DNA from: Brassica napus
Lineage: Eukaryota; Streptophyta; Magnoliopsida; Brassicales; Brassicaceae
Direction of reading: 5' to 3'
Assembly (NCBI RefSeq): GCF_020379485.1
Contig: NC_063451.1
Coordinates: 23,666,630 to 23,730,629 of the forward strand
DNA: 64,000 nucleotides
Of the stretch, positions 4,441 through 43,287 are shown in pieces. Under the pieces are notes generated by a model. It worked only from the letters and a program-made list of their open reading frames with translations. It did no database searches and had not been told where the DNA came from. Both the position numbers and the translations under genes were made by a program. Every line of letters starts with the position of its first letter. The first letter of the stretch is position 1.

Positions 4441-4459
4441 CTGTTTTGTCGTCACCATT

Positions 4460-6534
4460 ATGCCTGAATCTTATGATGAAAAACAAAGTTCAGAGTCCTT
4501 GAAAAGCACTTCATACCAGAATGTTAAAGCAGAGCAATCTCAATGCGAGGAACTGGTTCGAATCATTGACGTTTATGGGAACGCCTCAGGACAACAACTG
4601 AATAAATCTAAATCTTCAGTTTTGTTCGGTTCTAAGGTCATAACGTCCACAAAAAAATGATCTGAAAAGATCACTTGACATTACGAAAGAGGGTGGAATG
4701 GGAATGTACTTGGGCATGCCTGAAAAGATTTGTGGATCGAAGAAACAAGTATTTTCCTTCGTGCAAGAAAGGATGAACAACCATATAAACTCGTGGTCTG
4801 CAAAGCTTCTATCTAAAGGAGGGAAGGAAGTTCAAATCAAATCAGTCGCACAAGCTGTACCAACCTATGTCATGTCATGCTATTGACTGACTCAAGATAC
4901 TTGTAAAAAACTATCCGCCGCAGTGACGCGTTTTTGGTGGAGTACGAGTAATTATAACGGAAGACTTCATTGGGTAGTATGGGACAAGATTTGTGTTCCT
5001 TTGGAGGAAGGAGGTCTGGACTTCCGAGACTTTAACGACTTCAACCTAGCACTCTTAGCAAGACAAGTATGGCGACTGCTTATCTACCCAAAATCTCTAC
5101 TAAGCCGAGTTCTAAAAGGGAGGTATTATCGACACTCCAACCCGTTAATTATAGGTAAATCAAATAACTCCTCATATGGATGGAGTAGCTTAATGGCGTC
5201 TAGACAAATCCTGGACAAGGCACTTAAAAAGACTATTGGAACTGGAGAAAACACAAAAGTTTGGGAGGATGTCTGGATTCAGACGGAGCCAGCCAGACCT
5301 GCAATACCGAGAGAAGCTGTTGTTGATCCTGACTTGAAAGTTCACTACCTGATCGATCATGACCTCAAGGAATGGAATGTGGCTCTCGTGAATGAACTTA
5401 TTGCAGAAGAAGATATTCCCCGCATTTTGGCGATGAGAATAAGCCGCACGGCTCGTCGAGATAGTTACGTCTGGAAATATTCCAAGTCGGGTAGCTATAC
5501 AGTACGAACATGATATAAGGTGGCAGTAGAACAGAGACGCAATTCCCAACCTATTGAGGTGACAGAACCAAGCACAAATGGCTTAAAGAAAGAAGTCTGG
5601 AAACTCAAAGCACCTCGGAAAATAAAACACTTCATTTGGCAATCTATCTCAGGATATATAGCCTCAGCAAGCAAGCTGAAAGAACGCCATTGCGGTCAGG
5701 ATAGTACCTGCCAGAGATGCGGAGATGAACAAGAAACAGTGAATCACATTCTCTTCGAGTGCCACCGGCAGCTCAGTGTTGGGCCTTGTCGGATATTCCT
5801 ACCTCTCCGGGGATCTTCCCGTGTTCCTGCTTATTTATCAATGTCAAGACGCTCCTAAAATACTCCAAAGAGCGCAATCAACTCGGCGTTTGTTCTTCAG
5901 TGTTCCCATGGATCATGTGGTATCAATGGAAGACAAGACACCTTTGGAAACCTTACAATTGGCATATCAAGAGGCGGAAGCTTGGAGGATGGCACAGATG
6001 GTGGAGATAACCTTTACGGCTGAAGAAAACAACCACGCAACAGCTCCTCACGTCGCAGTCGAGTTGCCCTGCCTTTGGAGGTGTCAAGTCGACGCGTCAT
6101 GGCTGGAGACTAGTGATGGAGTTGGAATGGGTTTTATTCTCTATGAGCAGGAAACAGAAGTACTAAGAGGACATGGCAAAAGATCACAGACAGATTCTCC
6201 ACTTCACGCAGAGGCAGAAGGTTTATGTTGGGTGATGAAGGAGATAAGAAACCGGGGCCTGGCTCGGGTTTACTTTGAATCCGACTGCCAACAGCTAGTA
6301 CACATTATCCAACAGAAGAAAGAATGGCCTGTACTAGAAGCAGTATTGGACGACATCCAAGCTATTAAATCTTCGTTTGATGTTTTTTCTCATAAGTATA
6401 TCCCTCGTTTTGCAAATGTCCGTGCGGATGGTCTTGCCAAAGACGTCCCATCACGAGTGCAGAGCTTTAGCTCCTTTGAGATCATGGATACACTAAGGTT
6501 AGCCGTTAAGGCTAGTTTGTACGAACTCTTTTAA
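4460..6534 (+). pseudogene. Decayed 5'-truncated LINE (RT thumb, zf-RVT, RNase H)
   Basis: Consecutive fragments spell the C-terminal half of a plant L1-type ORF2. The end of reverse transcriptase comes first (YGNASGQQLNKSKSS near 4573, then MYLGMPEKICGSKK and the NHINSWSAKLLSKGGKEV block). Next is a zf-RVT domain with CQRCGDEQETVNHILFEC near 5710-5760, then a plant RNase H (RVT_3) at about 6060-6530 with VDASW and VYFESDCQQL. The endonuclease and catalytic RT core are missing. In-frame stops occur at 4658-4660, 4884-4886 and 5511-5513, and there is a frame change near 5775. An A-run follows at 6560-6570. The element is dead, although the RNase H part is still open for 252 codons. Confidence 0.85.
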
Positions 6535-24608: not shown

Positions 24609-25530
24609 TTGCTTTTGCGTAAATCTCAAATGCAAATTGATAAACTGATTTGTGGCAAAAAACCTTAACACATCTAACTCCATATGGTTTTCTCATTTCT
24701 GGAGAGATTTCTCTTTACGTCAAATTTAATGTTAACACATTTATTCTCTGATAAAGATAATACAGTCTCGTTAAATATTCAATATTTTACTAAAACCATA
24801 TTCGGTCATTTTCTTGTTAAAAAAACAAAGGAATCCTAGTCCTTTGAATAATTTATTAAGCATGGTCAACGACATAAGCATATGACTAAAGCATCTTACG
24901 ATGACGTAAATGATCCCTGTTAATGTTTTATTATTAAAGCTTTTGACTGAAGATGTATGGATACAAATCAAAGCATGACTTTGCGGCTAACTGCGTCCAC
25001 ATATCTTTACTTTTCACCGGCCAAAAACGTATTCGGTATTCCATATCTTAACGTGAATCATCCATTGATCACGTCCAAACCAAGAGCCAACTACTTAGTT
25101 TACGATCTTGAATGTAAAACATTCTATCACCAAAGTGATTGTAGAATATCTTTTCCCAGTTCCCAGGAGTTTCACAACGACTTCAATAGGTTCGATAAAA
25201 TCTTACAAAGAGTTGAAGAGAAGGATCTGAAGCAACCTTTTAACCAAAAATGTATACTATTACGAAGCAACTCAATGTGGCATATGTGGAGTCCTTGTTA
25301 GTAACCCAACAACACATAGGCGGTATAAAGAACAGAAGTTTACTCAAACATAACTCATTTTAGGACACTTGACTAGAATCAAACAATTTTTTTTTTATTA
25401 TTGGCATTTTTTAAATACCAAGCGTACCTTTTTTTTTACGTTATCAGAAAAAACATATTTACAAGAATATCATTACTTTTCGCTGCCATGTAAGCAAAAA
25501 CCCGGTGCCACGTAGGAATTCGGTTCCGTG
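24609..25530. other. Intergenic, AT rich
   Basis: One ORF of 114 codons (24957-25301, plus) has a mixed composition (YLVYDLECKTFYHQSDCRIS) but no recognisable domain, promoter context or splice support; I leave it as unassigned. The left edge of the motif-rich MULE lies near 25,490-25,540. Confidence 0.3.
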
Positions 25531-25534
25531 TTTT

Positions 25535-26135
25535 CATTAAGTCAGCCGTAAATCACTACATACGTCGTTACAGCTGATTTATTGCTACGTGACGGCTGAA
25601 TTAATAAACATGGCTGACTTAAGAGGAAAATGCTGATTTAAAAACATAAGTCAGCCGCCCGGTACGGCTGATTTACAAAAATGTGGATTATGGGATAACA
25701 ACTGACTTACAGACACAAGTTACGGCTGACTTATACATCGGTGGTTTGATTTCTGGAATATTCGGCTGAGTTGTAGTTAAGACACGACTGAGTTATGTTT
25801 CCCCGGTTGAGTTAATGAATATTGACTGGCTGAGTTATTTAATTTACGGCTGACTAATGGGATGTTGTTACAGCTGAGTTTATATTTAATCAGCCGTAAT
25901 AGGATGGATTAACAGTAAAATCAGCTTGTTTATGGCTGACTTATTAGCGAAATATTAATTACTAGAATAGCATTCGTTTGACGGCTGATTTATGTGACGA
26001 TACGGCTGATTTACGGTTTTTCATCCTAATTATGGCTGATTTCGGATCAAAATATTAATTACTGAAACAGTATCCACGGTTCGGCTGACTTACATTGTAC
26101 ATGAGGGCTAATTTACGTAGGTTGAGTTATATATT
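25535..26135. repeat. Dense CGGCTGAGTTAT-type motif array, left end
   Basis: About 22 copies in 600 bp by hand count, e.g. ACGGCTGATTTATG, TCGGCTGACTTAC, TGGCTGAGTTATT. Most are on the plus strand; a few are inverted (TAAGTCAGCCGT). Spacing is irregular, about 15-40 bp, so this is not a tandem satellite. There are no genes in it. Confidence 0.85.
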
Positions 26136-26381
26136 CGTTTGTCGGTGATTAAATGATTTTCCATGTCATCCGCCATGTCATCAACTCGAATTTTCCATGT
26201 CACTGCTAACGAACTACTTTACAACTAGGTTTGTGTGTGTTCATCTTTTTCTTCATCTTCTTTATCTATCTATCTATCTTCTTCATCTTATTCTTCATCT
26301 TTCTCAGAGATCTTATGGATCCGGTAATTATTGTTTCTATCTATCTTCTTCATCTTATTCTTCATCTTTCTCAGAGATCTT

Positions 26382-26615
26382 ATGGATCCTGTAATTATTG
26401 TTTCTAGTAATTGGATTAAGAAAAACAGATATGTATTCAACGCTGACAGTAAAGGGTGTAGAGTTCTGCATTTAGATGAGAAAACAAAACATGAAGAATT
26501 CGCAAATTCTGTACTCGATGATTACAGATTGAATGAATTGAGGCATCAAAAAACAATTGTGCACGACACTCCACCAGTTTACGGAGAACAAGGACCCATA
26601 AATGAATCGGAATGA
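26382..26615 (+). pseudogene. Truncated duplicate of the MULE transposase N-terminus
   Basis: It starts ATGGATCCTGTAATT and encodes DPVIIVSSNWIKKNRYVFNA, matching the start of the transposase at 30280. An internal deletion then joins LNELRHQK to a downstream VHDTPPVYGEQGPINESE segment and the frame ends. Upstream, a 70-bp stretch ending in the ATG (26267-26404) is tandemly duplicated. It retains the start codon that the main copy lacks. Confidence 0.75.
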
Positions 26616-27048
26616 CAGAGCAAGAGAGAGACGAGTAAAACGTTTTTCAGTTTTAGCTCAGAAGCAGAAGTTTCAGATGTTGAATCCAGAGACGAAAAAT
26701 ACAGTGGGAGTTATGATGAACAGAGCACTATCGTATGTTTTTATATTACGACTGGGTTATGGATTTTAATGTTTTCGTATTACGGCTGAGTTATGATTTC
26801 TGATGTTCTGTGACACGGCTGAGTTTTGTGGTTTAATGTTTTGTGTTACGGCTGAGTGGATGAGTTATGGATTAATTTCCTGCTCAAAAAACAAAATGTC
26901 GCAAAGCGAATCGTGGCGATAATATAACCATTCTCTACCTATAAATAATGTGTCTACTCGAACCGTACAACTTTAAACTCTCTATTTTACACAATTACTC
27001 TCTATCTCTATTTTACACAATTACTCTCTATCACCCCTCTCAAAGAAA

Positions 27049-27692
27049 ATGAAATATTTCATGATTCTTGAAATGCCCGAAAAAATTCAGGCGTTGGTGG
27101 TTGAACGTGTGGCCGGTAACTCCTTCCAAGATCTCTATGGCCTTAAAGCATCGTGCAAGTTGATGAAGGTGTTAGCAGATCGGCGTAGGGTATGCCATTT
27201 TTACGATGTGTTATCCGTTCCCTGGGGACTCAATATGCCTGCTGAGTTGTTGAAAACTTGCTACGCTGAGAGAAATCCAAGCACACTTTATATAAAGGGT
27301 GTTCAGTTTGTCTTCATATTAAACCTTGAAGAAGAAGGAGTTTCTCTCATGAAGCTTGCAGCGGATGTAGGATATGAGCGTGCTGTGTATACACACGCAA
27401 TGACTCGGAAAATCTTTTGGGATGATGATGAGGGGTATTTTGCTCGTTTTCCAAGGGAATTCATTATCAGGATCGGGAAATTAGTGTGATCTGTGAAATG
27501 AGGATGGGGTTTGTGGCACGGTGACGCGTTCTGCGCAAAGAGGGTCGAGTTCATTTCTGCGGTTGTTCCGTCGTTGTGCAGTTGCCACTAAGGATGACAA
27601 CATGTGTGACCGATGTTTCTGGATCAAAGAGGTGGGGTTGTTCTTCTGTGACTTTGAACCAATTAGTTTGATTAGGGACACAAGGAAGTGGT
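27049..27692 (+). pseudogene. F-box-like gene, copy 1
   Basis: It starts MKYFMILEMPEKIQALVVER, followed by VAGNSFQDLYGLKASCKLMK, the F-box-like start typical of the Arabidopsis At1g67623/At2g35280-type family. It continues with NPSTLYIKGVQF and a Sel1-like helical part. The frame is open for 146 codons and breaks at a TGA (27487-27489, GKLV*). Downstream remnants (CDRCFWIKEVGLF, RDTRKW near 27610-27690) show the original full length was about 230 residues with a C-terminal zinc-finger-like CxxCFW motif. F-box proteins are substrate receptors for SCF ubiquitin ligases; here the gene is element cargo. Confidence 0.7.
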
Positions 27693-28266
27693 GACGATGC
27701 ATTGTATTAGAAACCTATATTTTTTTGTTCTTTGCTATGCCATCATGTATGTAGAACAACATATTAATGTATGGGTTTATGCTAATGGTTACGGCTGAGT
27801 ATTCGTTTAATTACGGCTGAGTTATCATTTAATTCTGTCTGAGTTATCTTTAATTTATATTTCTGAGTTTTCGTTTAATTATGTCTGAGTTATCGTTAAT
27901 TTACGGCTGAGTTATCGTTTAATTAAGTCTGAGATATCTTTATGTCCGTTAATGTTTTCGCCCCTCCGTAACCTTTGTCGTCAACAGTTCACGTTTCTCC
28001 GTTAAAACAAAACTCTCTGTTTCATTTAAAGAGAAAACGTCGACATGTTAGCTCACAGAAGTTAAAATCGCGAGGCTCATTCCAAAAACCTCCAAATTTG
28101 AAAATTAGGGTTCTTCAGAAGAAAGGATTAACTGTAAGTCTCTTTTGTCAAGTCCGAGATCATATATTGTTTTTTTTACTTGATTCTATAAAATTGCCTT
28201 GAGCATTTTGTGTGTTTCGTCTTGGTATAGTTTCAATCATTTTTGTGTGTTGTGAAGTAGAATTCG

Positions 28267-28563
28267 ATGGATCTAGGGCGTGGAATTCCAAGGAGGTGCG
28301 ACTATGGAGCTGCTACTGTTGTGTTAACGTCAAATACCTCAAGAAATCCGGGAAGAAGGTTTTCTCGTTGTGGAGCAATTTCGGGTGAAAACCATGTTTG
28401 CAAATGGCTTGATGAAGCACATGATGAAGAGTTTGTAGTTGTGGCAAACAAACTAGCGACGATGGGGCAAGGTTTGGCCGACATAAAAGCAGACTTGGCT
28501 GATATGAAGAACGACATAAGTGAGATCATAGCACTTATCGAGTGTCTGAGGGTGAAGTGCTAG
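28267..28563 (+). CDS. GRF zinc-finger / coiled-coil protein
   Basis: Open frame of 98 residues starting MDLGRGIPRRCDYG. The pattern RRCDYGAATVVLTSNTSRNP, GRRFSRCG, HVCKWLDE matches the GRF-type zinc finger (C...GRRF..C...C.W), a single-stranded nucleic-acid binding fold. A heptad-like helix follows (ATMGQGLADIKADLADMKND). A plausible 5' UTR with an intron (donor GTAAGTC near 28133, acceptor near 28260) precedes the ATG. Small GRF proteins of this plan are abundant in Brassicaceae MULEs. This copy has no lesion; motif clusters lie on both sides. Confidence 0.75.
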   Translation: MDLGRGIPRRCDYGAATVVLTSNTSRNPGRRFSRCGAISGENHVCKWLDEAHDEEFVVVANKLATMGQGLADIKADLADMKNDISEIIALIECLRVKC

Positions 28564-29141
28564 ATGTATTGGTTGTTGTTGGGAGAAATAAAAATGTAGT
28601 CATTTAATTATCATTTAATTATGTCGGAATTATCGTTAATTTACGGCTGATTTATCGTTTAATTATGTCGGAGTTATCGTCGGCTGAGTTATCGTTAATG
28701 CAAAGTATTATCAAACTTTGTAAATAATAAAGTATTATCGTCTCGATGTTGTAAAGGCCTCGATATTAGTTTTGAGCCGTATTTTCTAAACTTTTGAAGC
28801 GCCATAATTAATTATCAACACGATCAAATCAAGAGAGACGAAACGTCTCATTATTATAAGGGACGTTTAATATTATAGAAAAGTATTACCGTGAATGTTA
28901 AATCAGTTTTTAAATACTAAAGTATTATAAAGGCCTCGATATTAGTTCTAAGCCGTATTTTCCACACTTTTGCCGTATTTTCCACACTCAGCCGTCCCAT
29001 TAAAATTAACAGCTGAGTTATATTCTAAGTTAAATAATAAAGTATTACCGTCTCGATCTCTATGAAGGCCTCGATGTTATATTAACCAACATGGCTGAGT
29101 TATATCAACCATCATTGCTTAGTTATATTAACGTTACATTA

Positions 29142-29831
29142 ATGGATTATTTCCCGATTCTTGAATTGCCTGAAGAGATTAAGGCGTTAGTGGTTGAACG
29201 TGTGGCCGGTAACTCAATCACAGATCTCTATGGCCTAAGAGCATCGTGCAAGTCGATGAAGGCGTTAGCAGAGTAGAGCAGGGTAAACCATTTTTTCGAT
29301 GTGTTATATGTTCCTTGGAGACTCAATATGCCTCCTGAGTTGTTTAAAACTTGCTACGCGAGAGAAATCCAAGCACACTTTATATGAAGGGTGTACAGTT
29401 TTTCTTCACATTTAACCTTAAGGAAGAAGGACTTGCTTTCATGAAGCTTTCAAAGGATGAAGGATATGAGCGTGCTGTGTATACATACGCAATGCTTTAA
29501 AAAAATTTGGTGTGATGAGGAGTATTTTGCTCGTTTTACAAGGGAATCAGTTGATAGGATCGGGAAACTAGTTCGATCTCTAAAATGGGCATGGGGTTCT
29601 CTTCACGGTGACGAGTTTTGGGCAAAGAGGTACGAGTTCATTTCAACCATTGTTCCTTCGTTCTATAGTTGCCAGTGTGTTCTTGTTTTGGAGCGAGATT
29701 GGGTCTTGTGATTCATTGAAAACAGTAATGGTGACAAAATGTGTAACCGCTGTTTCTGGATCAAAGAGGTGGGGCTCTTCTTCCGTGAGTTTGAACCGAT
29801 GAGCGTGATTAGGGACACAAGGGAGTGGTGA
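29142..29831 (+). pseudogene. F-box-like gene, copy 2
   Basis: It starts MDYFPILELPEEIKALVVER and is closely similar to copies 1 and 3. It breaks at a TAG near 29274 (KALAE*), shifts frame around 29355-29385, and again near 29495. C-terminal remnants (CVTAVSGSKRWG in another frame, SVIRDTREW near 29800) confirm it was once full length. The most decayed of the three copies. Confidence 0.75.
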
Positions 29832-30276
29832 AGATGTATTGTATCAGAATCTTATCTTATTTTTATGTACTTTGCTATGACATTATCACAGCTGGGTTAT
29901 GTTTTACTTTATGGTTGGATTGTCTTTTAATTACGGCTGATTTTTGTTTATGGCTTTGTTCTCTACAATTACGGCTGAGTTTTTTAATTTCATAATGACT
30001 GAGTTATCGTTAATTGGCAGTGTTATTTAAATACGAAGTGATTGAATTATTTAAATGCGAGACGACTGAGTTATTGTTATTTAAAAGCTGAGATTATGCT
30101 AATTTTTTGGCTGAGTTTTGTAAAAAAATCCAAGATACATACAAGGAATCCGCTATGTCATCAACTCAGATTTGCCATGTCATCACTAACAAACAAAATT
30201 TACAACTTAGTTTATGAGACTGTTCATGTTCTTCTTCATGTTATTTATCTATCGTTTTCATCTTTCTCAGTTGGTT

Positions 30277-33014
30277 ATTGATCCGGTAGTTATTGTTTTC
30301 GGTAACTGGATTAAGAAAAACAGATATGTATTCAACGTCGACAGAAAAGGGTGTAGAGTTCTTCATTTAGATGAGAAAACAACACATGAAGATTTCACAA
30401 AGTTTGTTCTCGATGATTACGGATTGAATGATTTGAGGGATCATATTCAGCTTAGCTACATGTTCTCGAATAAAGCATTGAAAACAATGTCGCACGACAC
30501 TCCACCAGTTTACGTGTCCAATACTCGACAATTGCAAGGTTTTCTAAGCCTAAAGAAAATCGAACAACTATGTCTCTGGGTGGAGATTACGGGGAACAAG
30601 GATGACATAGCAAGAGAGAAGTAGAAGCTTTAGAAGTTCAGTCCAGAGACGAAAACTACAGTGGGAGTTGCGATGGTTGCAGTTTGGAAAAGGAACAAGA
30701 GGACAATGAGAATGACTGCTCTAGTAACGTGGAAGGAAAAATACACGACATAGTTAGAGAAGATGAAATAGGCAAAGAAAATGAAGAAGATGATGAATTT
30801 GAAAGCCGATTTGATATGTTCGATGACTCGGACGGTGCGTCATCTGAAGATGATAACTTCAGCTCATACGGTGAGTCTCCTACAGAAGACGAAGATTCAA
30901 CAACGCTACTCCCAAGAAGAGATATCAGAATTTCTCGATGAGCGGACCTAAAGGGAATCTGGAGGTTCTAAAGTTGTAGATGTCGTCGATAGACCTTGCG
31001 GTAGGGAAACTATACGAGAGTAAAGACAATTTGGAGAGACGACTGAAACTTCTTACAATGAGGCATCGATTTGATTTTGATTTAGAAACATCAACCCCGA
31101 CATCATATGTTGTTAAGTGTTGGGTTGATGGATGTCTCTGGAGAGTTCGTGCTTCTACCCAAGGGGAATCCCCGGCGTTTTATGTTCGTATTTACGATTC
31201 GAATCATACATGTTCTTGCACTGAGCGTTCTAATTGATCTCGACAAGCAACACCGGATATTTTAGGAGAGTTGTACAAGAACTTTCTCGGCGACGTTGGT
31301 CCGGCCGTTTGCCCTACGAGTGTCGGAATAGCTACCACTAAGCAGTTTGGTGTAAAGGTAATTACTTTGATGCGGCTGAGTTATGTTAACAATATGGCTG
31401 AGTAATATAAAACGTAGCGGCTGACATATAAATACAATGCGGCTGGGATATTATAATGTTAGATGTGACTGAGTTATAATAAAGCTAGGGTTGAGTTAAA
31501 GTTTTGTTGTGGCGGTCTTCTTCCTATAAAAGGGCTGAGTTATGTGTATCGTTTTTTCATGTGAATAGGTGGATTATTGGAAATCACACCCGACGCTGAA
31601 ATTTGCAAGGGAAATCGATGAGGGAACACCTGAGTGTGGGTTTAAAAGCTTGCCTTCTTACTTATATATGATAAGAAGGGCAAATCCGAGTACAGTTACG
31701 CGTCTTCAAATCGATGAGCTTAGAAGATTCATGTATGTGTTTCTTGCGTTTGGTGCGAGCGTAAATGGGTTTCCTTTCATGCGCAAAGTTATTATCGACG
31801 GCACGTTTCTTAATGGTAAATACAAAGGGACGCTACTCACAGCACTAGCTCAGGATGGTAACTTTCAGATTTTTCCAATAGCCTTCGCAGTGGTTGACAT
31901 TGAAAATGATGATTCGTGGCATTGGTTTTTTACGCTACTAAAACTTTTGATTCCTGACGACGAGGGTCTTGCGATAATCTCAGATAGGCATAACTCGATA
32001 GGGAAAGCAATTAGAAATGTGTATCCGTTAGCTACTTGGGGAATATGCACCTATCATTTATATAAGAACATATTGGGACAGTACAGAGGAAAAGATGTAT
32101 TTCGTCTGGTGAAGAAAGCGGCGAGATGTTTTAGTATGTCTGACTTTACTACGATTTTTGAGGAGATTGAAGCGGTTAATCCTGCACTCCACGGCTACCT
32201 CCAAAGAGATGATGTCCGACTGTGGACGCGCGTTCATTTCCCGGCGCAAGAGGTACAATTTGATGATTGCGAACATAGCGGAATCATGAACAGAGTGTTG
32301 TCTAACGCTAGAGGACTTAACATTGTTCGAATATTAGAATCGATACGGGTTATGATGCCCAGATGGTTTGCTGAACGGAGAGAGGATGCCAGATCGCAGC
32401 CAACCACGCTTACTCGTGGTGTGGAGAAACTACTACATGTAAGCCAGTCGTAACAGTAAACATAAGTCAGCCATTATAGTTCTTAAGTCAGCCTTCATAT
32501 GTAATAAGTCAGCCGTTTCACATTTATTATATTTTTCTTAATAGGATCGTGTAACTGCCGCCAGAGATTTGACGATACAAAAGATTGATGATCATCACAC
32601 TGAAGTTAAATATGGATCTTCTGGCGAGTATTTGAATGTTGTTAATTTGGTAGAGTGAAAGTGCACATGTCGGCATTTCGAACGCGAAAAATTACCATGT
32701 GTACACGCAATCGCAGCCGCGGAGTACATGAATGTTTGTTGTATATCCATGTGCAGTCCTTACTATAACAGCGCTTATTTGGTGAGCGTATACGATGAAT
32801 CGGGCATGCCGGTTGACTCAGCGCAACCTGTTCAGAAATCTTGGCTAACCAACTGTGCTTGCCCCTGTCTATTCGTCAACAACCAGGAAGACCAAAGAAA
32901 AATAGGATGAAATCTGCTTTAGAAGTTGCACTTGCAAACAAACGTCCTAGGAAAGAACACACATGTTCTCGATGTAGACAGAGTGGACATAATGCGAAAA
33001 CTTGTCCGATGTAA
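30277..33014 (+). pseudogene. MURA-type (VANA-like) transposase
   Basis: The N-terminal part (DPVVIVFGNWIKKNRYVFNV, PB1-like) is followed by an acidic region (30684-30930), the MuDR N-terminal domain (31000-31230, YVVKCWVDGCLWRVRAS), then the MULE catalytic domain (31750-32100: VIIDGTFLNGKYKGTLLTAL, AIISDRHNS, ATWGICTYHLYKN). A SWIM finger CTCRHFEREKLPCVHAIAAA (near 32660-32715) and a zinc knuckle CSRCRQSGHNAKTC (near 32963-33008) end it. Introns: 31358-31568 and 32439-32544. Lesions: the start codon is ATT instead of the ATG seen in the duplicate at 26382; stops near 30941, 30980, 31235 and 32657; a frame change near 32860. Confidence 0.88.
31366..31550 (+). repeat. Motif array inside transposase intron 1
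   Basis: Seven copies or near copies (GCGGCTGAGTTATG, GCGGCTGACATATA, GGGCTGAGTTATG) occupy almost the whole 211-bp intron, while the adjacent exons have none. Intron 2 (32439-32544) has three copies in the opposite orientation (AAGTCAGCC). Confidence 0.85.
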
Positions 33015-33044
33015 GCAAGTGTTGTAGGGATTTTCATGTTTTTG

Positions 33045-33500
33045 TATTACTGCTGGGTTTTTGGTTATCAAGTTCTTCTATTACGGCTGAGTTTTGGATT
33101 TTCATGTTCTTCTATTACGACTGAGTTTTGGATTTTCAATTTTTTGTATTACGGCTGAGTTTTGTTTTCATGTTTTTGTATTACGGCTGGGTTTTGGATT
33201 TTTTTTTTTTTGAATTACGGCTGAGTTTTTAGATTGTCATGTCTTGGTATTAGTTTCCGATGTATTTTTACACACGAAAAAAATGGCGGCATAATTAGCC
33301 AGTTACAGCTGAGGAAATGGCGAAAACATTGAAAAACAAAATGTCTGTACTTAATAGTCCCTACAAAACTTAATAGCCCCTACGTAATTATTGATGTATT
33401 GAAATATGAAACGTCTGAGTTATTATAATAAACGGTTGATTTATTGATGCCTTGAAATACGAAACGTCTGAGTTATTATAATAAACGGCTGATTTATTGA
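33045..33500. repeat. Motif arrays downstream of the transposase
   Basis: About eleven copies: a run of six ACGGCTGAGTTTT-type units at 33045-33235 spaced about 35 bp, then ACGTCTGAGTTAT / CGGCTGATTTATT pairs at 33410-33500 within a 60-70 bp local duplication. Confidence 0.8.
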
Positions 33501-33671
33501 ATGAAATACATTACATCTGGATTATGGAATAACTTCCCGCCCAAAATAAGACACGTCGCGATATGAAACCGTTTTGCTGCTGATAAATAAGGAACAATTA
33601 CATGTTCAACTCTCTATAGTTTTACACAATTGCTTTCTCTATCTAAATCAATTTCACCCCTCTGAGAGTAA

Positions 33672-34367
33672 ATGAAATATTTTCCGATTCTTGAAATGCC
33701 TGAAGAAATTCAGGCGTTGGTTGTTGAACGTGTGGCCGGTAACTCCTTCCAAGATCTCTATGGCCTCAGAGCATCGTGCAAGTTGATGAAGGCGTTAGAA
33801 GATCGGCGTAGGGTATGCCATTTTTACGATGTATTATCCGTTCCATGGGGACTTAATATGCATGCTGAGTTGTTGAAAACTTGCTACGCTGGGAGAAATC
33901 CAAGCACAGTTTATATAAAAGGTGTACAGTTTTTCTTCTCATTCAGCCTTAAAGAAGAAGGGCTTTCTCTAATGAAGCGTGCAGCAGATGCATGATATGA
34001 GCGTGCTGTGTATATACACACAATTACTCGAGCAATCTTTTGGTGTGATGGGCAGTATATTGCTGGTATTCCAAGAGAAACAGTTGATAGGATCGGGAAC
34101 CTAGTGCGATGCGTGAAATGGGGATGGAGTTTGTGGTATTCTGACGAGTTCCGTCAAAATAGGGCCCTGTTCACTTCAGCTTATCTTCCGTCGGTCTACA
34201 GTTGCCAATGTGCAAATCTTGTGAAGCGACAATGTCTCTGCTTGTGGCACATTGATGTGACTAAGGATAACAACATGTGTGACTGCTGTTTCTGGATCAA
34301 AGAGATAGGCATGTTCTTACGTGATTTTAAACCGATAAGCCTATTTAGGGACACAAGGAAGTGGTGA
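33672..34367 (+). pseudogene. F-box-like gene, copy 3 (least decayed)
   Basis: It starts MKYFPILEMPEEIQALVVER. It is open to a TGA at 33993-33995 (AADA*YERAV) and then continues in the same frame to 34367, giving IFWCDGQYIAGIPRETVDRI, MCDCCFWIKEIGMFLRDFKP and ISLFRDTRKW before the stop. One nonsense codon therefore separates it from a full gene of about 231 residues. The family resembles the At2g35280-type F-box-like proteins. The 5' leader (CAACTCTCTAT...CACCCCTCT) is shared with copy 1. Confidence 0.78.
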
Positions 34368-34429
34368 AGATGTAATGTTATCATGTTCTTTGCTATGCCA
34401 TTATGTATGTCGAACAACAAATTAATGTA

Positions 34430-34760
34430 ATGAAGGCTGTGTTATTGTTTCTTTTGGCTGCTTTATAGTTTAATTGTGGCTGAGTTATTGTTTAATGACG
34501 GCTGAGTTAGATCTGACTTAATAAAGGTTACGGTCTGAGTTACATAAAACATAGGCTAACTTATAATTACATAAAACATAGGCATAGTTTAATTGTGGCT
34601 GAGTTATTGTTTAATGACGACTGAGTTAGATCTGACTTAATAAAGGTTACGGTCTGAGTTACATAAAACATAGGCTGACTTATCATTAGTATGACGCCTG
34701 AGTTATTTAATACGTTAAGTCTGAGTTACATAAAACCTAGGCTGACTTATAATTACAAAA
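34430..34760 (+). repeat. Motif array with internal 110-bp duplication
   Basis: About fifteen motif copies. A unit of about 110 bp (TTTAATTGTGGCTGAGTTAT...ACATAGGCT) is repeated at 34470-34563 and 34587-34680, showing that arrays also grow by local duplication. Confidence 0.8.
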
Positions 34761-34840
34761 CACGACTGCGCACAATTATAGTAGTAGCAAAGTAACGTCA
34801 TTCCAACCCCACAAACAACCACATTCCACAAACACCGACC

Positions 34841-35270
34841 CTAACTCATACATTCTTCTCCTTTTCTCCCAGATTCCGTCTTCATTCCTTTAATCTCTTT
34901 CTCCAACCGAGCAACGTTAAGTCTGAATTCGGAGATGTCTTTGTTCATGCCACTTATCAGTGACTTAATATCCTCAACCTCTTCCACCAAACACTCATCC
35001 GCCCATTTGAATAAATGTCTCTGATTTCACCAATATAACCAGATCTAAGTATTACGTTACAGAACATGCGAAATAAGAACCAAAACGAACCTTGTTATAT
35101 CCTTTAGCGCAGCAATAATACAATCTTCCTGGATTTGTAGCACTTCCAGATGTAAAAATTTTAGAGGGTTCACCACACCAACATTGTATCAGCGTTCCTC
35201 TTTCCGCGTTCAAACATCGTCTGTAAGAATTTCCTGAAACGCAGGATAAGGAATACATTTTTATTCTCAA
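34841..35270 (-). CDS. GRF zinc-finger / coiled-coil protein, two exons
   Basis: Exon 1 (35270-35091) encodes MRIKMYSLSCVSGNSYRRCL, then IQCWCGEPSKIFTSGSATNP and GRLYYCCAKGYNK. A 70-bp GT...AG intron follows (35090-35021). Exon 2 (35020-34841) continues RHLFKWADECLVEEVEDIKS and a coiled coil ending GRKGEECMS. Together they give a complete GRF finger (C.C...GR.YY.C...F.W) plus helix, 119 residues, phase 0, no lesion. It is convergent with the F-box-like copy 3 and close in plan to the gene at 28267. Likely nucleic-acid binding; role in the element unknown. Confidence 0.75.
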
Positions 35271-35479
35271 AACAATTTCAAAAAAACATTAGTGCGACTT
35301 TAGGGTGAGTAAGAAGACGACATCGTGAAACAGCAACGTTTACTTTTTTCCCTTTTTAAGTATTAAATATATAAAAATTTAATGTCTCGATATTGAAAAT
35401 TACTCGACACATGTGTGCCAGTCGTTTATTTCAAAGTCATCATAATTAGTCTCGATATTCTCATATTGTTGGCGGAGTT

Positions 35480-35750
35480 ATTCCTCATGCGCCATAATTA
35501 ATCGACAACTCAGTTCAATCAAGCAAGTGGAAACGTCCCATTAATAATGAAATGGGCGTGCGATAATCTACGTTGTGGTATAAACCTTCACAGAAACATT
35601 CACGACTGAGTTAGATTAGTACGTTTGGGCTGAGTTAACTTAACGTTGTGGCTGAGTTATATTAACATTCACAACTGAGTTACCTTATACGTTTTTACTG
35701 AGTTAACTTAAAGTTATGGCTGAGTTATGTTAACAGATACGATTGAATTA
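35480..35750 (+). repeat. Motif array
   Basis: About eight copies (e.g. GTGGCTGAGTTATATTAAC, TTATGGCTGAGTTATGTTAAC) with a 30-35 bp rhythm, lying between the GRF gene and the unrecognised gene at 35833. Confidence 0.8.
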
Positions 35751-35832
35751 TAATACATAAGTAAATATGAATTCGACATGTTGAATTACATTCAGAAACA
35801 GAAAATATCAGGTTCAAAATACAGACAACGCA

Positions 35833-36293
35833 TCATTCTCGAAAACCAAAATTGTCAGGACCAAACTCTTCAAACATGTGGACGAGATCATGCCAAACTC
35901 TAGTTAGCATCCACGGAGGCTTGTCGCCTCTGTTGGCCCAAGTGCTCTTCAAATGGCGCATCTGGCAACGAAATACCGTCCTGGCCACAAGATTAAAATG
36001 TGTCCAAAGTGTCGAATTATGCCTTCGATCCCACGTGTTTTTGCGCTACAACAAAAAATATTACAAAACTGTTGTTAAGAACACACATGTTCTCAATGAA
36101 CCCATCCTTCTGCAAGAATCGACGGGATGACGAGGGAGAGATCATTTAAAAATTTGAACCAGGTAGTGCTGGTTGTGTCAAGCAAGTCACCCGGACCAAG
36201 GTATAGAAGAGGGAGGTTTTGACGATTTGCAGAGCTTAGTGTCGCATTGACACTGTTCTCTAACCTCGTTGAATTACCATAAACAATCGGCAT
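35833..36293 (-). CDS. Unrecognised two-exon gene (about 134 aa)
   Basis: Exon 1 (36293-36102) encodes MPIVYGNSTRLENSVNATLS through STTWFKFLNDLSLVIPSILA. A 56-bp intron GTTCAT...TTGTAG follows (36101-36046). Exon 2 (36045-35833) encodes RKNTWDRRHNSTLWTHFNLV, TVFRCQMRHLKSTWANRGDK and PPWMLTRVWHDLVHMFEEFG, then a stop. Open frames, low-bias amino-acid composition and Trp-rich helical segments argue for a real protein. I do not recognise the family. An in-frame upstream ATG at 36410 would add a 39-residue hydrophobic start. It lies inside the MULE complex, so it may be a third element-encoded protein. Confidence 0.5.
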
Positions 36294-36513
36294 AAATTTT
36301 GATGGGGATAGAGAGATTTTGTTTAGGTTATTTCTAGAGAGAGAAGGGCGTAATAAATGTGCAAGAGAGTGGACAATATATAGAGAGATATATAGAACGT
36401 CAAACGTCACGAGTTAAAATTTCCCAAGATTCAGTTATCTTTTTCCCGCCAAACGTCAAGATTAAGTTATACTTCACGGCCGAGTTACTTTAACATTTAC
36501 GGCTGACTTAGTA

Positions 36514-36590
36514 ATTGAGGTTTAGGGTTTAGGGTTGCTTAGTTAGGGTTTAGGTCTGATTTTTTGGGGATTTAGGTTTAGGATTTGGAT
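36514..36590 (+). repeat. Short telomere-like repeat
   Basis: A few degenerate TTTAGGG units (GGTTTAGGGTTTAGGGTTGC and relatives). Too short to mark a chromosome end; such telobox-like patches are common near plant promoters. Confidence 0.6.
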
Positions 36591-36599
36591 TTATGGTGA

Positions 36600-38530
36600 A
36601 AGAAATATAACAAATAACACAAATTCATGATAAATAATACAATAATAAATTACGAGTTTTAAATATTGCTCACACCTTATATTTAAATGTAAGGTTTTAA
36701 GTAATCGTAAGACAACATATACCTCAAGAACATGATCGATTCTAAACTCGTAAATTCAATAAAGAAGCCACATTCAGTTGATTATATATTCACTTCAAAT
36801 TGATAATTGGAGTTTCAATATCCCAAAGCATTTTGAATAACTAACCTTACTTTAGTTGATTAATTACAATTTTGCCACTATTGATGACATGGCGAACTCA
36901 CAACCCTCCTCAGCCAACTAAGCTAATGACCCTTTAATTACTAGAATATTTACATTCTATGCCATTGATCCCTATTATATATTTTTTTCTTCATGTAAAC
37001 AATTTAATACGGCTCATTTAAAATTACAATAACATTTAATGTATATTACATTTGCCGTAGAACTACAAGTTAGAATATAGTACCTGCATCAATTAGGATA
37101 ATGGTTGCATAAATTTCGGCATTATTATTAAAGCATATTCCTTACGTCGATATTGCATATGTCATTTTATAAGTAATTTTGTTAACCAAATGACATAGTT
37201 AAAGACCAAGTCCTGGTCCATAGATTTTTCTAGCCCAACATTTTGATACAAAACATGAGAATTTTACATTTATCCATAAACCTATAATATTCTTAATTTA
37301 ATATAACATGTAACTAATTAATTTATAATATTATATAAAATTATGAACAAAAAAAATAAAATAAATATGATAATTTTCCTAACATTTTCACCAATTATAG
37401 TGAATACCATTTCATAATTTGTATTCAAACTATGAACGCAAACGGTAAGAACTGACTACATAAGAGTTTATATAGAATAAAATCACCATTGTAAACAAAG
37501 ACGAACACGAAGCCATTTATTTTGTCCATCTCAAGAGTTTAGAACATACTATATATCTCTTTGGCGTTATCGACTTTAGTATATGAAGAACATTAAACCA
37601 ATTCTAAGATCATTTGAACTCTTTAGTTCTCTACTAGTGAATACCATTTCACAATTTGTCGGGATAAGGTCAATATTACGAAATACATGAGTTTATTCTC
37701 TATTTACGCTTTAACCGTTCGGGTATCCATTCAAGTTTGGTTCATATTTATTCCGGTTTCAACTTTTCGAGATTAAAATTTAAGTCATATTTGGGTATTT
37801 GTAAATTTTGGTTCGGTTTGGTTCGGCTCTTTGCGGGTTCAGTTCGGATTCGGATAACCCGTTTAACTTATTTTAAAATTTAAAATTCATATATACTTTA
37901 AACTTTCAAAAACTAGAAGGAAAATTATATATTACATATAAATTTGGACAATTTATGCTGAAATACCTAAATTTAACATATAAATTAGCTTAACTTGAAT
38001 ATTTGGATAGATAATCGATTGGATATTTCAAGTATTTTTAGTGTTTCGAGTATTGTTTGCTTATTTAGCTATTTAAGTTTGACTATTTGTATATACTTTC
38101 AAATATTTTTGGACAACCTCAAAATATCTTATATATTTAGATATTTTTTATATATTAAATATAAAACAATTAATTTATTTAAGTATATAAATCTATTTCA
38201 GATACATTCGGACACCGAAATTCTTTCGTTCAGATCGGTTTCAGTTTTCTAAATAAGAAAATTATAAATCCGTTCGGATATTTAACCAATTTCAGATCGG
38301 ATTCGATACTATGTTTTAGATCAGATTTGGTTTTAGATTTTTGGATTCTTTTTGTTTACCTAGCCCTATACAAACTAATGCATAATCCAACTTTATACAA
38401 AATATCCCCAAAAAATGTAAATTGCATTATGTTATTGTCAGTAAAATCTCAAATCTCACCCCACGCAAAGAGTGGGTCTCTACCTAGTAACATTTTAAAG
38501 TATAAACATTTCATCTTTTTAATTCTAGTG
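36600..38530. other. Motif-free AT-rich stretch within the MULE complex
   Basis: There are no convincing genes. The GGCTGAGTTAT motif is essentially absent from about 36,550 to 38,540, unlike both sides. 37,690-38,310 is rich in GGTTCGG / TCGGAT-type words shared by many plant dispersed repeats, and the phrase GTGAATACCATTTCA recurs at about 37401 and 37638. It may be a later insertion or the gap between two elements. Confidence 0.45.
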
Positions 38531-38534
38531 TATG

Positions 38535-38775
38535 TTTGAGGTATGGCTGAGTTATAATAGCGTAACGACTTACTTATACTAATCGATACGACTGATTTAT
38601 ATAAACATTTTCGATTTTAGAGTATGTTTGGGGTATGGTGGATGTATGGCTGAGTTATTCGAATAGATACGTCTGAGTTACATATAACCTTTCGGGCTGA
38701 GTTATATGAACATTTTCAATTTTAGAGTATGTTTGAGGTATGACTGAGTTATAAAAATGATAAGACTGAGATATA
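38535..38775 (+). repeat. Motif array beyond the 3' end of the DUF1985-Ulp1 gene
   Basis: About eight copies, including two paralogous blocks that each contain TTTTAGAGTATGTTTG followed by GGTATGGCTGAGTTAT-like sequence. Confidence 0.8.
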
Positions 38776-38832
38776 TTAGCTAAATTCAAATACTTAATAA
38801 CTTAATTCAAATACAAAATAACAAACACATGT

Positions 38833-41800
38833 TCAATTGAACAGCAAATTGTTCATCGTATTATTTCCTCCTTCATCGAGGATCTCTGCTGCCATCTTCA
38901 CCCTTAAACCTTGAATATTGTTATCGTTTATCCCATCAAAAGTTACACCAAGCGCTAGACACTCCACAAACTTCATCGAATACACCCCACAATCTGAATG
39001 CGAACTTCTTCTTACTAGGGGCTCGGAGATTGGCAGGAATAAGTTCACTCAACATCACGGGAAGAATAAGCGTTTGCGGTTTAAATGAATCTAGTATTCT
39101 CTGCTCACTCGGGTGTTGCATGTCCAAAGATTGGATCATATCAATCAATCTTCTCCTTCTTCAGATCCACGTGAAACGCCACCCAGTGATTTCCGCCGGT
39201 TTGAAGACATCCGTACAAGTGATCCACATCTTCATACCACTTCAAGTTTGTTGGACATTCAAGGGGAAGCTTACCGTTTATTAGATCTTCATAACCATTG
39301 CCTTTGAACGTGATCATACTAGGTTTTATCTTGAACTGCTTGAAATCGTGAATCCAAAAACTTAACACCCAAACGTCAATGAAGGCAATCCGCTTGGACC
39401 AGAATGGGGTGGGATTTCGCATGGACCTTTTAATGAGGACGTTTATATATGCACCGACATGCTACACAAAGAATATTAACAAGTCAGCCGTAATCAAATA
39501 TATAAGTCAGCCGTAATCAAAAATATAACTCAGCTGTAATAGAATATATAACTCAGCAGTACTAAAAACTTACATTATCAAACACCCATCCATATTCTTT
39601 TTCCGGCCACGGTCTTTCATGGATGAGTATGCTGTAGAAGTCACTCTCATGATCAGCTGGGAGGACTGCTGGTTTATCTGCTGGTGCTGGTGGTTTGGGT
39701 GGAAATCCCTTAATGTGTTGCATCAGTTTTTCAAATAGCACCGGATCAATAGGTGCTAGAGGGTCATATATTGCTGATGAAGGCTTAACATTCTTCCTCA
39801 TGCACGTCGTTCCATCGTCTCCAATGTACGGAAAAACTGGTGGTGAAGAAACAATCATCAATGCAAACCCTTTTGGAGATAATTGAACACGTTTCTCCCG
39901 ACATTCCTTTACTACGGCAGATCTAACCACTTCCTGATTCTCGACATCAGACTCAGGCGCAAATTTGTTCTCTTCCCCAAGAACTCCATCGTTCGTCACA
40001 GCACATTCACTGTCCTCTCCAGCATGTTTTTGCTTCTTTAACTCAACATGTTTTTGCTTCTTTAGCTCAGCCAGTTTTTGCTTCTTTAACTCAGCCTCTT
40101 TTCTCTTAGCCTCGGCTTCTTGATTCTTTAACTCAGCCAGTTTTTGTTTCTTTAACGCAGCCTCTTTTCTCTTAGCGTCAGCCTTCTCCTTCCTCTTCAA
40201 CGCAGCCTCTGCCTGCACTGCTTTTTTCTTATCAGTGGCATCCTCATCCTTTACAGTACGCCTGCCCCTGCAGCCGCGTCCATAGGCTAGAACCTTAGCA
40301 TCCTTATCATCCTTAGTAGCCTTTGAAGGAGAAAAATATACGAAATCAAGATCAGTAGCTTTAGCGACACTACCAAACTCCTCAGCCAAAGTCTTTTCCA
40401 CCCTGTATCCTTACCAAACTCCTCAGCCAAAGTCCTTTTCACCCCTGTATCCTTATCAAACTCCTCAGCCAAAGTCCTTTTCACCCCTGTATCCTTACCA
40501 GGAGTCTCGTCGACTAACGCTGGACTATTGACAGACTTCTGCTGCGTATTCTGCTGAGGTGATGGCAAAGATTCTTCTTCACCGCCGTTTGAGAGGTTAT
40601 CATAGTTTTTGGGAATTTTCCCTAGAACTTTCAGACGCTCCTCCACTAAACCTTTCACCATGTCATCAATCGTCTTCTGGTCCATCAATGGTCTGTTCCG
40701 TTCTAACTCGTAAGCGTCAAACCGTGAATCAATCTGACCAAATTTTCTGGAAATATTCTCCAGAGTACTCACAATGGTCGTCAGAGTCGCTTTGTTCTCC
40801 AAATCTTTGCTACCTTCCTCCTCGCTAGAACCCTTTCCCGTTGCAGCAGTTTACCCTCAATGTTGTTTACTTCATTCTGCGTCTTAACTTTCTTCTGCTT
40901 CTTAGTGGGTGGCTCAGCTTCTGACAAAATTCCACCCTTCATTTTCTTCTTCTTCTCATTCCCCTTCCCCTGCGCATTCCTCTGTGCATTCCTCTGCACT
41001 TTCCGAAAACCTTTCACAAATCCATGTATGACTGTTATCAAGCTAACGAGTTGTGGGTCGTCAGGTTCACCCGGCCATTTTGGAAACATCTCTTCAATTG
41101 AGTCCTTCAAAACCATTCTCCTCACACGCACCTGCAACACCAAGTTATAATTAAACTCAGCCACCAAAATAATACATAACTCAACCATCAAATATAATAA
41201 ATCAGCCAACAAATATAATAAATCAGCCATCAAAAAACTAAAAACTCAACGTTAAACCTTACCTCGCCATGCTCTTTGATTTGGCAGCCAACAAGTTATC
41301 AAAACTTGCACGTGTACGCTTTCCACCCCATCGCAAAAGCGGAACGTTTTCATTATTCACCACTCTCCCAAAATTCTCACCGAAGCATGCGACGGATTTA
41401 TACGCCCAAATCAATAACGCGACGGTCATGCCGCTTATTATGTATGACCCTCCTTCTGGAGCCTACGTTTTAATAGAGTCAATGAGAACTTCGTATGCAG
41501 TCCGACCCCATGGATACGACCCCATGGCTTCATCGTCGAATACCCTTATTGCACTTTCAAAAGGTATCCTTGAATTGTGATGAAAACAATAGACTCCCAT
41601 GGCTTGAAGAAGTAGCAGCCCTAACCACTTACGCTTTTCAAAACTCCAGAGCGGACAAAACGCTAATGCTTCCTTCAGTTCATCTAACTTGGGTGCCATC
41701 CCAAGCGGCACCTTCAGCTCCTCCCAAAACTCTTTGTATTGATCAGGTTCAAAATTTTCGGTTGGCAATGGACATGTGTTTAACCTAGTGATCTCACCAA

Positions 41801-42100
41801 ACTCGAGCAAGCTAAACCTGATAGCCTCATCAACCACGAGACACCATATCTCCTTCTTATGTACTCGCAGTTGTCTACATAGTAGATAGTGTACGGTCCT
41901 ACCAGACCATATGCTTTCGCGTCCAGCTAGCCTAGCAACTACTCCAATGAGAGAGTTCACCAGTTCTTCCCACACATCAAGTCCTATTGTTACTCTAATG
42001 TGGGGGAAATTTCCTATACGGAAATTGTGATTAATATCTTTTTTTTAGGTTAGAAGACCCTTCAGGGTAAAGTTTTGGAGGGTAATCCCGTGATTTAACT
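38833..42100 (-). pseudogene. DUF1985 - coiled-coil - Ulp1 (C48) protein, VANC/Kaonashi-like
   Basis: Read on the minus strand. DUF1985 covers about 42090-41270 (YPPKLYPEGS, WEELVNSLIGVVARL, EIWCLVVDEAIRFSLLEFGE, IWAYKSVACFGENFG). A basic linker follows at 41130-40860, then a charged coiled coil with KRKEAELKKQKLAELKKQ repeats (about 40240-40020) and a C48 cysteine-protease end (39440-38833) with the catalytic-type NHWVAFHVDLKKEKID and SDCGVYSMKFVECLALG. Introns at about 41260-41135 and 39567-39470 hold motif copies. Lesions: a one-base shift in an A8 run (about 42040), TAG near 41461, frame changes near 40830, 40400, 39140 and 39010. Genes of this plan are characteristic MULE cargo; VANDAL elements encode VANC anti-silencing proteins, but equivalence is inferred. 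Confidence 0.82.
40381..40502 (-). repeat. 45-bp coding tandem repeat in the DUF1985-Ulp1 gene
   Basis: Three consecutive units encode KDTGVKRTLAEEF-like peptides. The third has lost one base (GGGTGG instead of GGGGTG), which causes a frame change. Confidence 0.8.
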
Positions 42101-42119
42101 TCAGCAACATCTATCTGAT

Positions 42120-42445
42120 CATATAACCCAACAATAAATCAGCCACAAGATAACAATAACACAGCCATAACATAACAATAACTCAACAAAATAAAAATAA
42201 CTCAGCCACAACATAACAGTAACTCAGCCATAACATAACAATTCCTCAGTCACGACATAGCAATAACTCAGCAATAACATAACAATTACTCAGTCATAAC
42301 ATAACCCTAACTCAGTCGCAACAAAACCCTAACTCAGACGCAACAAAACCCTCAACCATATCACAGCCGCAACATAACCCTATCTCAGTCACAACAAAAT
42401 ATATAACTCAGATGAAATATAATATATAACTGACCCACAAACTCA
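42120..42445 (-). repeat. Dense motif array at the 5' end of the DUF1985-Ulp1 gene
   Basis: About eighteen copies on the minus strand (plus-strand form ATAACTCAGCCA / CCTAACTCAGTCGCAACA) with a near-regular 17-20 bp period. This is the tightest array in the window, in the likely promoter or first intron of the gene. Confidence 0.85.
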
Positions 42446-43287
42446 ACCAAAATACAATATATAACGTCGCGACATCCTACCGGAAAAGACGAACTCGTAG
42501 ATAAGAATGCGACGAAGACGATTTCGTACAAATGATTGAAGACGACGATTTCGGGGAAGACGATATCGGAGAAGACACAGTATCAAAGACAAAGAGTTAG
42601 TTCGAGGAAGACGAAGTAAACACAATGTCGACGAGGATTTCGGAGAGTGGGATAAAGCTTGTGGTTCCTTCTTCGAGACGACGACAATGTTCTTCGTTTC
42701 TTTTTTTTTAACCCCTATGTATATGTGGAGAAGGAGACAGTTTGATTTCTATTTTGCTTATGTGGATTGTTAATTACCGATGTGGATTTAGTGTTTAAAA
42801 ATAATATTAATTAAAAAAAACTAACCAAAGGCTCTTATTGTCATTTACAAGGTGTATCCAAACATTCTAGTAATTTTAAAAAGATATATAACACTCTATT
42901 AATAAACCAACTTTTCTATAACATTCTAGTAATTTTCTATATAAAGAATCGGTTTAATACTTTAATCACAACTCCAGCACAACTTTCAAATTGTGGATCA
43001 ATGAGAGGGAAATGTACGATAATAACAAATATTTCTTAGAAGAACTTGTCCGAACTATCTCGAACCAGTTCAATACCACCACAGAGCCAGATCTAAGCAT
43101 AGTCTGCTGAAATATTGACTTTGACTCCCAAAACTTTTGAAAGTATTTTACATAGATATAAATCCCAAAATTATGAATTCTTTTTTTTTTCTACTAAACA
43201 TCTTAAAAATGTTTAAAGCCTCAAAAATGTGCAGGTGCGACAACTAAAATATGTTCCTCAAAAAAGCGTAGCTAACAATTGTGACTA
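42446..43287. other. Right edge of the MULE complex and intergenic DNA
   Basis: 42446-42660 is a GAAGACGA-rich stretch that could be the first exon or 5' leader of the minus-strand DUF1985 gene (a short frame starting MSRRYILYFG near 42472). From about 42780 the DNA is AT rich without recognisable features; AACATTCTAGTAATTTT occurs twice (42863 and 42921). Confidence 0.4.

What the first reader, a model, noticed from the sequence alone, without database searches (positions are those of the whole stretch)
25535..42450. A short motif, (A)CGGCTGAGTTAT, saturates the noncoding DNA of a VANDAL-like MULE
Seen: more than 100 copies and close variants (core GGCTGA[G/C/T]TTA) fill intergenic stretches and introns over 17 kb, while recognisable exons lack them and flanking DNA has essentially none. 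Spacing is irregular (15-40 bp), in both orientations, so it is not a satellite. Known: in Arabidopsis VANDAL elements, VANC proteins reverse silencing by recognising short motifs dispersed through noncoding parts of the same element. Inferred: this is the cis half of a self-recognition, anti-silencing system with a motif different from the one I recall for VANDAL21.
Basis: partly seen in the sequence, partly recalled or inferred. Interest (0 to 1): 0.88.

Follow-up and report, generated by a model that had tools for sequence, protein, structure and literature searches.

The report
Transposon's own anti-silencing target motif
A large rapeseed jumping gene has its noncoding DNA filled with a short repeated DNA word that is probably the landing site of a protein made by the same family of jumping genes to lift the plant's silencing of it; this kind of system is known from Arabidopsis, and what is added here is another word, its regular spacing and its match to one branch of the protein family.

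Summary
A 17.6-kb Mutator-type transposon (window 25333-42939, 9-bp duplication TATAAAGAA) carries 128 motif sites (PWM >=10 bits, consensus TTAYGGCTGABTTAT) against 5 in the rest of the window; the strict core GGCTGABTTA occurs 42 times inside and once outside. Sites avoid exons: 6 in 8.4 kb coding, 122 in 9.2 kb noncoding. One detail is wrong: spacing is phased (modes 22, 33, 44 bp), not irregular.

The encoded DUF1985 protein also carries a Ulp1 domain, as in KIU-type VANC. The predicted fold of its DUF1985 exon has one confident PDB match: VANC21 bound to its target DNA (9lnj).

Motif and protein co-vary: 14 of 14 distinct loci of this protein clade carry arrays; 38 other DUF1985 loci (30 after removing near-duplicates) have 0-2 sites each. 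A different DUF1985 MULE is filled with GTGTACA; a third locus carries the published VANC6 motifs.

The window copy's genes are broken, so it is only a target. Binding and demethylation are untested, and the motif of VANC1, a studied VANC I could not compare, is unread. Verdict: a genuine new member of a known kind.

The parts
25333..42939 (.). Whole element (17,607 bp), VANDAL/KIU-type MULE, flanked by the 9-bp target-site duplication TATAAAGAA
   Evidence: TSD and TIR scan; ends agree with two relatives that have their own 9-bp duplications
25537..26130 (+). 5' noncoding motif array (mostly +, 3 sites -)
   Evidence: PWM sites; aligned array in relative A
26404..26657 (+). Partial duplicate of the transposase N-terminal coding region
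   Evidence: self-blastn 26361-26548 vs 30257-30443, 87%
27048..27714 (+). Captured F-box/TPR_27-like gene, copy 1 (ORF 26977-27489 scores TPR_27)
   Evidence: Pfam TPR_27; duplicates 75-79% identical
27793..27938 (+). 22-bp-period motif array, 7 sites
28261..28560 (+). GRF zinc-finger-like ORF
   Evidence: ORF read; a similar ORF in relative A scores Zn_ribbon_GRF
29141..29799 (+). F-box/TPR_27-like gene, copy 2
30282..33014 (+). MULE transposase gene (VANA-like), three exons, broken by stops and frame changes in this copy
   Evidence: MULE domain; sequence and ORFs; domains in relative A
31359..31569 (+). Transposase intron 1 with 7 motif sites (+)
   Evidence: GT-AG borders read; sites; aligned in A
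32439..32543 (-). Transposase intron 2 with a motif array in reverse orientation (also reverse in A)
33051..33230 (+). 34-bp-period motif array downstream of the transposase
   Evidence: TRF period 34
33672..34366 (+). F-box/TPR_27-like gene, copy 3
34435..34751 (+). Motif array including a 119-bp tandem duplication
35471..35752 (+). Motif array, period 22-23
38545..38775 (+). Motif array near the 3' end of the VANC-like gene; last + array
38833..42044 (-). VANC-like (KIU-type) gene: exon 1 41263-42044 (DUF1985), exon 2 39572-41130 (repeat-rich), exon 3 38833-39460 (Ulp1/C48-like); broken here (in-frame stop 41463-41465, frame changes in exons 2 and 3)
   Evidence: DUF1985 E 2.4e-17; reading; C48 E 4e-39 in relative A; open three-exon frame in relative B
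39461..39571 (-). VANC-like intron 2 with 4 motif sites, 23-bp spacing
40062..40162 (-). Motif-like sites inside the exon-2 peptide repeat (A-E-L codons), 4 sites
   Evidence: synonymous-codon test on relative B
41131..41262 (-). VANC-like intron 1 with 4 motif sites, 21-24-bp spacing
42123..42448 (-). Dense array upstream of the VANC-like gene (period 22)

Best explanation
The element is a VANDAL-type MULE of Brassica napus whose noncoding DNA is an array of target sites (TTAYGGCTGABTTAT) for the DUF1985 (VANC-like, Ulp1-carrying) protein encoded by members of the same family. The protein would bind the arrays through its DUF1985 domain, several molecules side by side about two or three helical turns apart. 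It would thereby remove DNA methylation from copies of its own family only, allowing transposase and VANC expression and transposition. Shown here: the motif, its noncoding confinement, its phased spacing, its conservation, its co-variation with the protein clade, and the predicted fold's match to a VANC21-DNA complex. Inferred: binding of this protein to this motif, cooperativity, demethylation. The window copy no longer has an open VANC-like gene, so it can only be a target.
Against: No binding or methylation data. Most of the 38 other DUF1985 loci showed no convincing array of their own in the 3.4-6 kb seen, so a DUF1985 gene does not always come with an array nearby. Tandem duplication alone can make regular spacing. 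Alignments may slip by one repeat unit, which favours motif-on-motif columns. The 22-bp phase is not seen in the GTGTACA element. The window copy's gene is broken, and neither relative read in full (A, B) has every transposase and VANC-like exon open.
Confidence: 0.85

Rival explanations
1. The motif is the binding site of the MULE transposase (subterminal repeats grown out of hand), not of the VANC-like protein.
For: Transposases of other DNA transposons bind repeated subterminal motifs (recalled, not from a call). The sites are dense near both ends.
Against: Sites fill introns and internal spacers over 17 kb and are not confined to the ends. The termini carry a different repeat, TTACTAGAATGTT, in the TIRs, which fits a transposase site better (inference). 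Sites avoid coding DNA, as VANC21 targets do.
Confidence: 0.06
2. Neutral tandem-repeat turnover: a 22-bp unit spread by slippage, with no bound protein.
For: Real tandem arrays are present, with spacers alike within an array.
Against: Arrays with different spacers and periods (21-24, 33-34, 44) share the same core. Motif columns are more conserved than spacers. The core persists upstream of DUF1985 genes only 53-76% identical.
Confidence: 0.05
3. The arrays serve chromatin or RNA functions (nucleosome phasing, splicing, siRNA production) unrelated to the VANC-like protein.
For: 11-bp phasing and TTA words one turn apart could affect nucleosomes (inference); a reversed motif overlaps a splice donor in transposase intron 2.
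Against: The motif differs between DUF1985 elements; arrays also fill intergenic DNA; orientation is not tied to transcription (intron 2 is reversed in both copies).
Confidence: 0.04

Closest known systems
VANC21 / VANDAL21 (Hiun), Arabidopsis (PMC5735166: three of six parts read, plus passages)
   Same: MULE with transposase plus DUF1985 protein; short motif dense in introns and intergenic DNA, same orientation within arrays, rare in exons; repeat-rich variable protein region; predicted fold matches the VANC21-DNA complex
   Different: Motif TTAYGGCTGABTTAT instead of YAGTATTAY (0 copies here); protein carries Ulp1/C48, and no DUF287 was found in relative A; captured F-box-like and GRF genes (and B3 ORFs in relative A)
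VANC6 / VANDAL6, 8 (PMC5735166)
   Same: Same logic; another DUF1985 locus in this genome (L055) carries its motifs, 6 AGTTGTAC and 3 AGTTGTCC in 6 kb
   Different: In this element AGTTGTAC has 2 copies and AGTTGTCC none
Ulp1-carrying VANC (KIU, Kaonashi) VANDALs; VANC1 / VANDAL1, 2, 22 (review PMC13317346, passages; PMC10398659, one of six parts plus passages; Sasaki 2022 not held)
   Same: DUF1985 plus Ulp1 domain in one gene; the review states that they act on their own kind through motifs
   Different: Motif sequence and spacing of VANC1 targets could not be read, so sameness or difference of motif is unknown; that VANC1 itself is of the Ulp1 type was not stated in what I read

Membership tests
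VANDAL clade of MULEs | MULE transposase with SWIM and CCHC zinc fingers | tested here: met
   MULE domain in the window; DBD_Tnp_Mut, MULE and SWIM over cut-off in relative A, zinc knuckle only sub-threshold (17.3 bits, cut-off 27) though a C-x2-C-x4-H-x4-C is readable; criterion from PMC6446971 (passages)
VANDAL clade of MULEs | 9-bp target-site duplication | tested here: met
   TATAAAGAA (window), TTAGAATTT (A), TTAATATAT (B)
VANDAL clade of MULEs | short or degenerate TIRs (46-174 bp or none) | tested here: met
   A right end against B left end reversed, 76 columns, 86.8%
VANDAL clade of MULEs | transposase groups with VANDAL in a tree | not tested
   no reference VANDAL transposase was fetched
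VANC proteins | DUF1985 domain with the VANC21 fold | tested here: met
VANC proteins | variable region with tandem peptide repeats | tested here: met
   exon 2 repeats read; coding tandem repeats of period 24 and 42 bp
VANC proteins | own short motif, dense in the element's noncoding DNA, same orientation within arrays | tested here: met
   a few sites in the 5' array are reversed
VANC proteins | sequence-specific binding and loss of DNA methylation | not testable with these tools
   needs EMSA/ChIP and bisulfite sequencing
VANC21/VANC6-type VANC | DUF287 domain (named with DUF1985 in the legend of Fig. 5 of PMC5735166) | tested here: not met
   no DUF287 in the four VANC-like ORFs of relative A at E <= 0.01
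KIU-type (Ulp1-carrying) VANC | Ulp1/C48 protease domain in the DUF1985 gene | tested here: met
   Peptidase_C48 E 4e-39; SENP1 profile hit 3.4e-9; joining of the exons is inferred from GT-AG borders and open frames in B and from annotated proteins with both domains

The most novel reading that the evidence does not exclude
A helically phased target code. VANC-like molecules line up along one face of the DNA on sites 22, 33 or 44 bp apart, so that spacing as well as sequence makes the element recognisable as self, and the element even carries its target inside the coding repeat of the VANC-like gene. Several such codes coexist in one crop genome: GGCTGAGTTAT with the Ulp1-type clade, and GTGTACA and AGTTGTAC/CC with two members (55% identical) of another DUF1985 branch.
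Probability: 0.4. Interest if true: 0.75.

Novelty: new member of a known kind. Interest (0 to 1): 0.62.

Why it matters
It carries the VANC/VANDAL anti-silencing logic into Brassica napus with a readable cis code, relatives with an open VANC-like gene, and natural controls in the same genome (DUF1985 elements with other motifs). That makes two open questions directly testable: how VANC proteins and targets change specificity together, and how one protein recognises a 15-17-kb target. The phased spacing suggests an answer to the second. Several motif-protein pairs in one genome could also guide sequence-specific demethylation tools.

Full report
What was checked. The core GGCTGABTTA occurs 42 times between 25.5 and 42.3 kb and once in the rest of the window. 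A PWM (consensus TTAYGGCTGABTTAT; seventh core base G, C or T but rarely A) gives 128 sites at >=10 bits inside and 5 outside. The model was trained on the region, so the independent supports are the k-mer table, the exact counts and the relatives. In the whole assembly GGCTGABTTAT has 5,316 matches against 1,400 for the reversed pattern; the first 100 places, all that is listed, fall largely into clusters.

Element and host. The element is 25333-42939, flanked by TATAAAGAA. Two relatives on contig C1 (A = L009+L010, B = L011+L012 reversed) are 99.4% identical over 15 kb and have different 9-bp duplications, TTAGAATTT and TTAATATAT, so the family moved recently. The host is very probably Brassica napus: two contig lengths of the assembly (49,204,614 and 56,537,224) are also the contig lengths given for B. 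napus proteins P0023 and P0035. Flanking ORFs score as LTR-retrotransposon and tnp2-type transposase pieces.

Genes. The + strand carries a three-exon MULE transposase and three copies of an F-box/TPR_27-like gene. The - strand carries a three-exon gene: DUF1985, a repeat-rich exon, and Ulp1/C48 (domains in relative A). In the window copy this gene has an in-frame stop at 41463-41465 and frame changes in exons 2 and 3, and the transposase is also interrupted. In relative B all three exons of the VANC-like gene are open (1065 residues) and so are transposase exons 1 and 2, but the last transposase exon changes frame near its end; in A that exon is open while transposase exon 1 and VANC-like exon 2 are split over two frames. 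So neither relative read in full has every exon open.

Where the motif sits. Window copy: 122 sites in 9,201 noncoding bp, 6 in 8,406 coding bp. Relative A: 104 in 7,611 and 6 in 7,357. The four introns read are all occupied. The main exception is exon 2 of the VANC-like gene: 4 sites in the window copy, 5 in A and 5 in B. In B, 1000 synonymous recodings of exon 2 average 0.52 sites, with a maximum of 4; the repeats are tandem copies, so this is not five independent events.

Spacing. Pooled over the window copy, A, and two shorter copies C and D (L013, L014, chosen because they hold the motif), of 257 same-strand gaps up to 60 bp 142 are 21-24 bp, 26 are 32-34, 18 are 43-45, and only 11 fall in 25-31. 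Arrays with different spacers share the core. Sites point mostly + on the left and - on the right in both the window copy and A, with a reversed array in transposase intron 2 in both.

Conservation. In eight noncoding blocks aligned between the window copy and A, motif columns are 517/620 identical and spacers 1537/2171; the bootstrap difference never reaches zero in 2000 draws. Slippage between repeat units during alignment remains a caveat.

Co-variation. The 8 loci returned as best DUF1985 matches to A each carry 16-24 sites in 3.8 kb; one of them, L058, is A itself. With A, B and the window copy that is 14 of 14 distinct loci; no fetched locus of this clade was dropped, and C, D, L016 and L017, chosen for the motif, are not counted. 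At 64% identity (L066) three of 8 sites read GACTGATTTA, a possible drift. By contrast 38 other DUF1985 loci have 0-2 sites each: L018-L047, L048-L051, L054-L057. They were the 30 best of 150 scored Pfam hits plus 8 hand-picked lower ones; nine pairs among them are near-duplicates, which leaves 30 distinct. No tree was built, but the two sets separate cleanly by protein: to B's DUF1985 exon the 38 score 42-74 bits, the 8 best loci and the window copy 439-570.

Other motifs. One of the 38, on C348, extended to 19 kb, has 88 TGTACA (5.4 expected), none in the outer 6.2 kb, and a MULE transposase; its DUF1985 exon aligns to that of B over only 78 residues at 36% and hits VANC21 at E 1.2e-4. Another, L055, carries 6 AGTTGTAC and 3 AGTTGTCC, the published VANC6 motifs (motifs). 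These two proteins are 55% identical to each other and their motifs share TGTAC or a near form. Most of the other loci show no convincing array in the DNA seen, which tells against a simple one-gene-one-array rule.

Mechanism. Known, from PMC5735166 (three of six parts read, plus passages) and PMC10398659 (one of six parts, plus passages): VANC proteins bind motif arrays in noncoding DNA of their own VANDAL family and cause loss of methylation; RdDM targets the same regions. A review (PMC13317346, passages) says Ulp1-carrying VANC (KIU) elements act on their own kind through motifs. By homology the present arrays are the cis half and the DUF1985-Ulp1 protein the trans half of such a pair. The phased spacing suggests side-by-side binding on one face of the helix; that step is inference, and the GTGTACA element does not show the 22-bp phase.

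Novelty. Among the papers that my ten library searches listed I saw no report of this motif, but none of the searches used its letters, I read only parts of six papers (PMC5735166, PMC10398659, PMC13317346, PMC6117577, PMC8756742, PMC6446971), and Sasaki et al. 2022 is not held. So 'new motif' means different from VANC21 and VANC6, not different from VANC1.

Noticed in passing
L053+L048+L052 (G000:C348:17730574-17749573): A second DUF1985 MULE in the same genome filled with a different word, TGTACA/GTGTACAY (88 TGTACA, 5.4 expected), with none in the outer 6.2 kb.
   Followed up: partly
L055 (G000:C379:12671318-12677317): DUF1985 locus carrying 6 AGTTGTAC and 3 AGTTGTCC, the motifs published for Arabidopsis VANC6.
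   Followed up: partly
window 40062-40162; L011 exon 2 (4176-5852): The target motif also lies inside the coding peptide repeat (A-E-L) of the VANC-like gene itself, more often than synonymous recoding predicts.
   Followed up: partly
L009+L010 ends; window 25333 and 42939: Terminal inverted repeats contain about three copies of TTACTAGAATGTT roughly 33 bp apart, possible transposase sites.
   Followed up: no
window 27048-27714, 29141-29799, 33672-34366; L009 8557-9359: Captured gene families inside the element: triplicated F-box/TPR_27-like gene, GRF zinc finger, and B3-domain ORFs in relative A.
   Followed up: no
L013 and L014: Shorter copies of 4-5 kb keep the arrays at higher density (9.6 and 12.1 sites per kb against 7.3); they were picked for having the motif.
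   Followed up: no
   Followed up: no
L066 (G000:C234:4588287-4589686): Upstream array of a 64%-identical DUF1985 gene shows GACTGATTTA variants (3 of 8 sites), a possible shift of motif with protein divergence.
   Followed up: no
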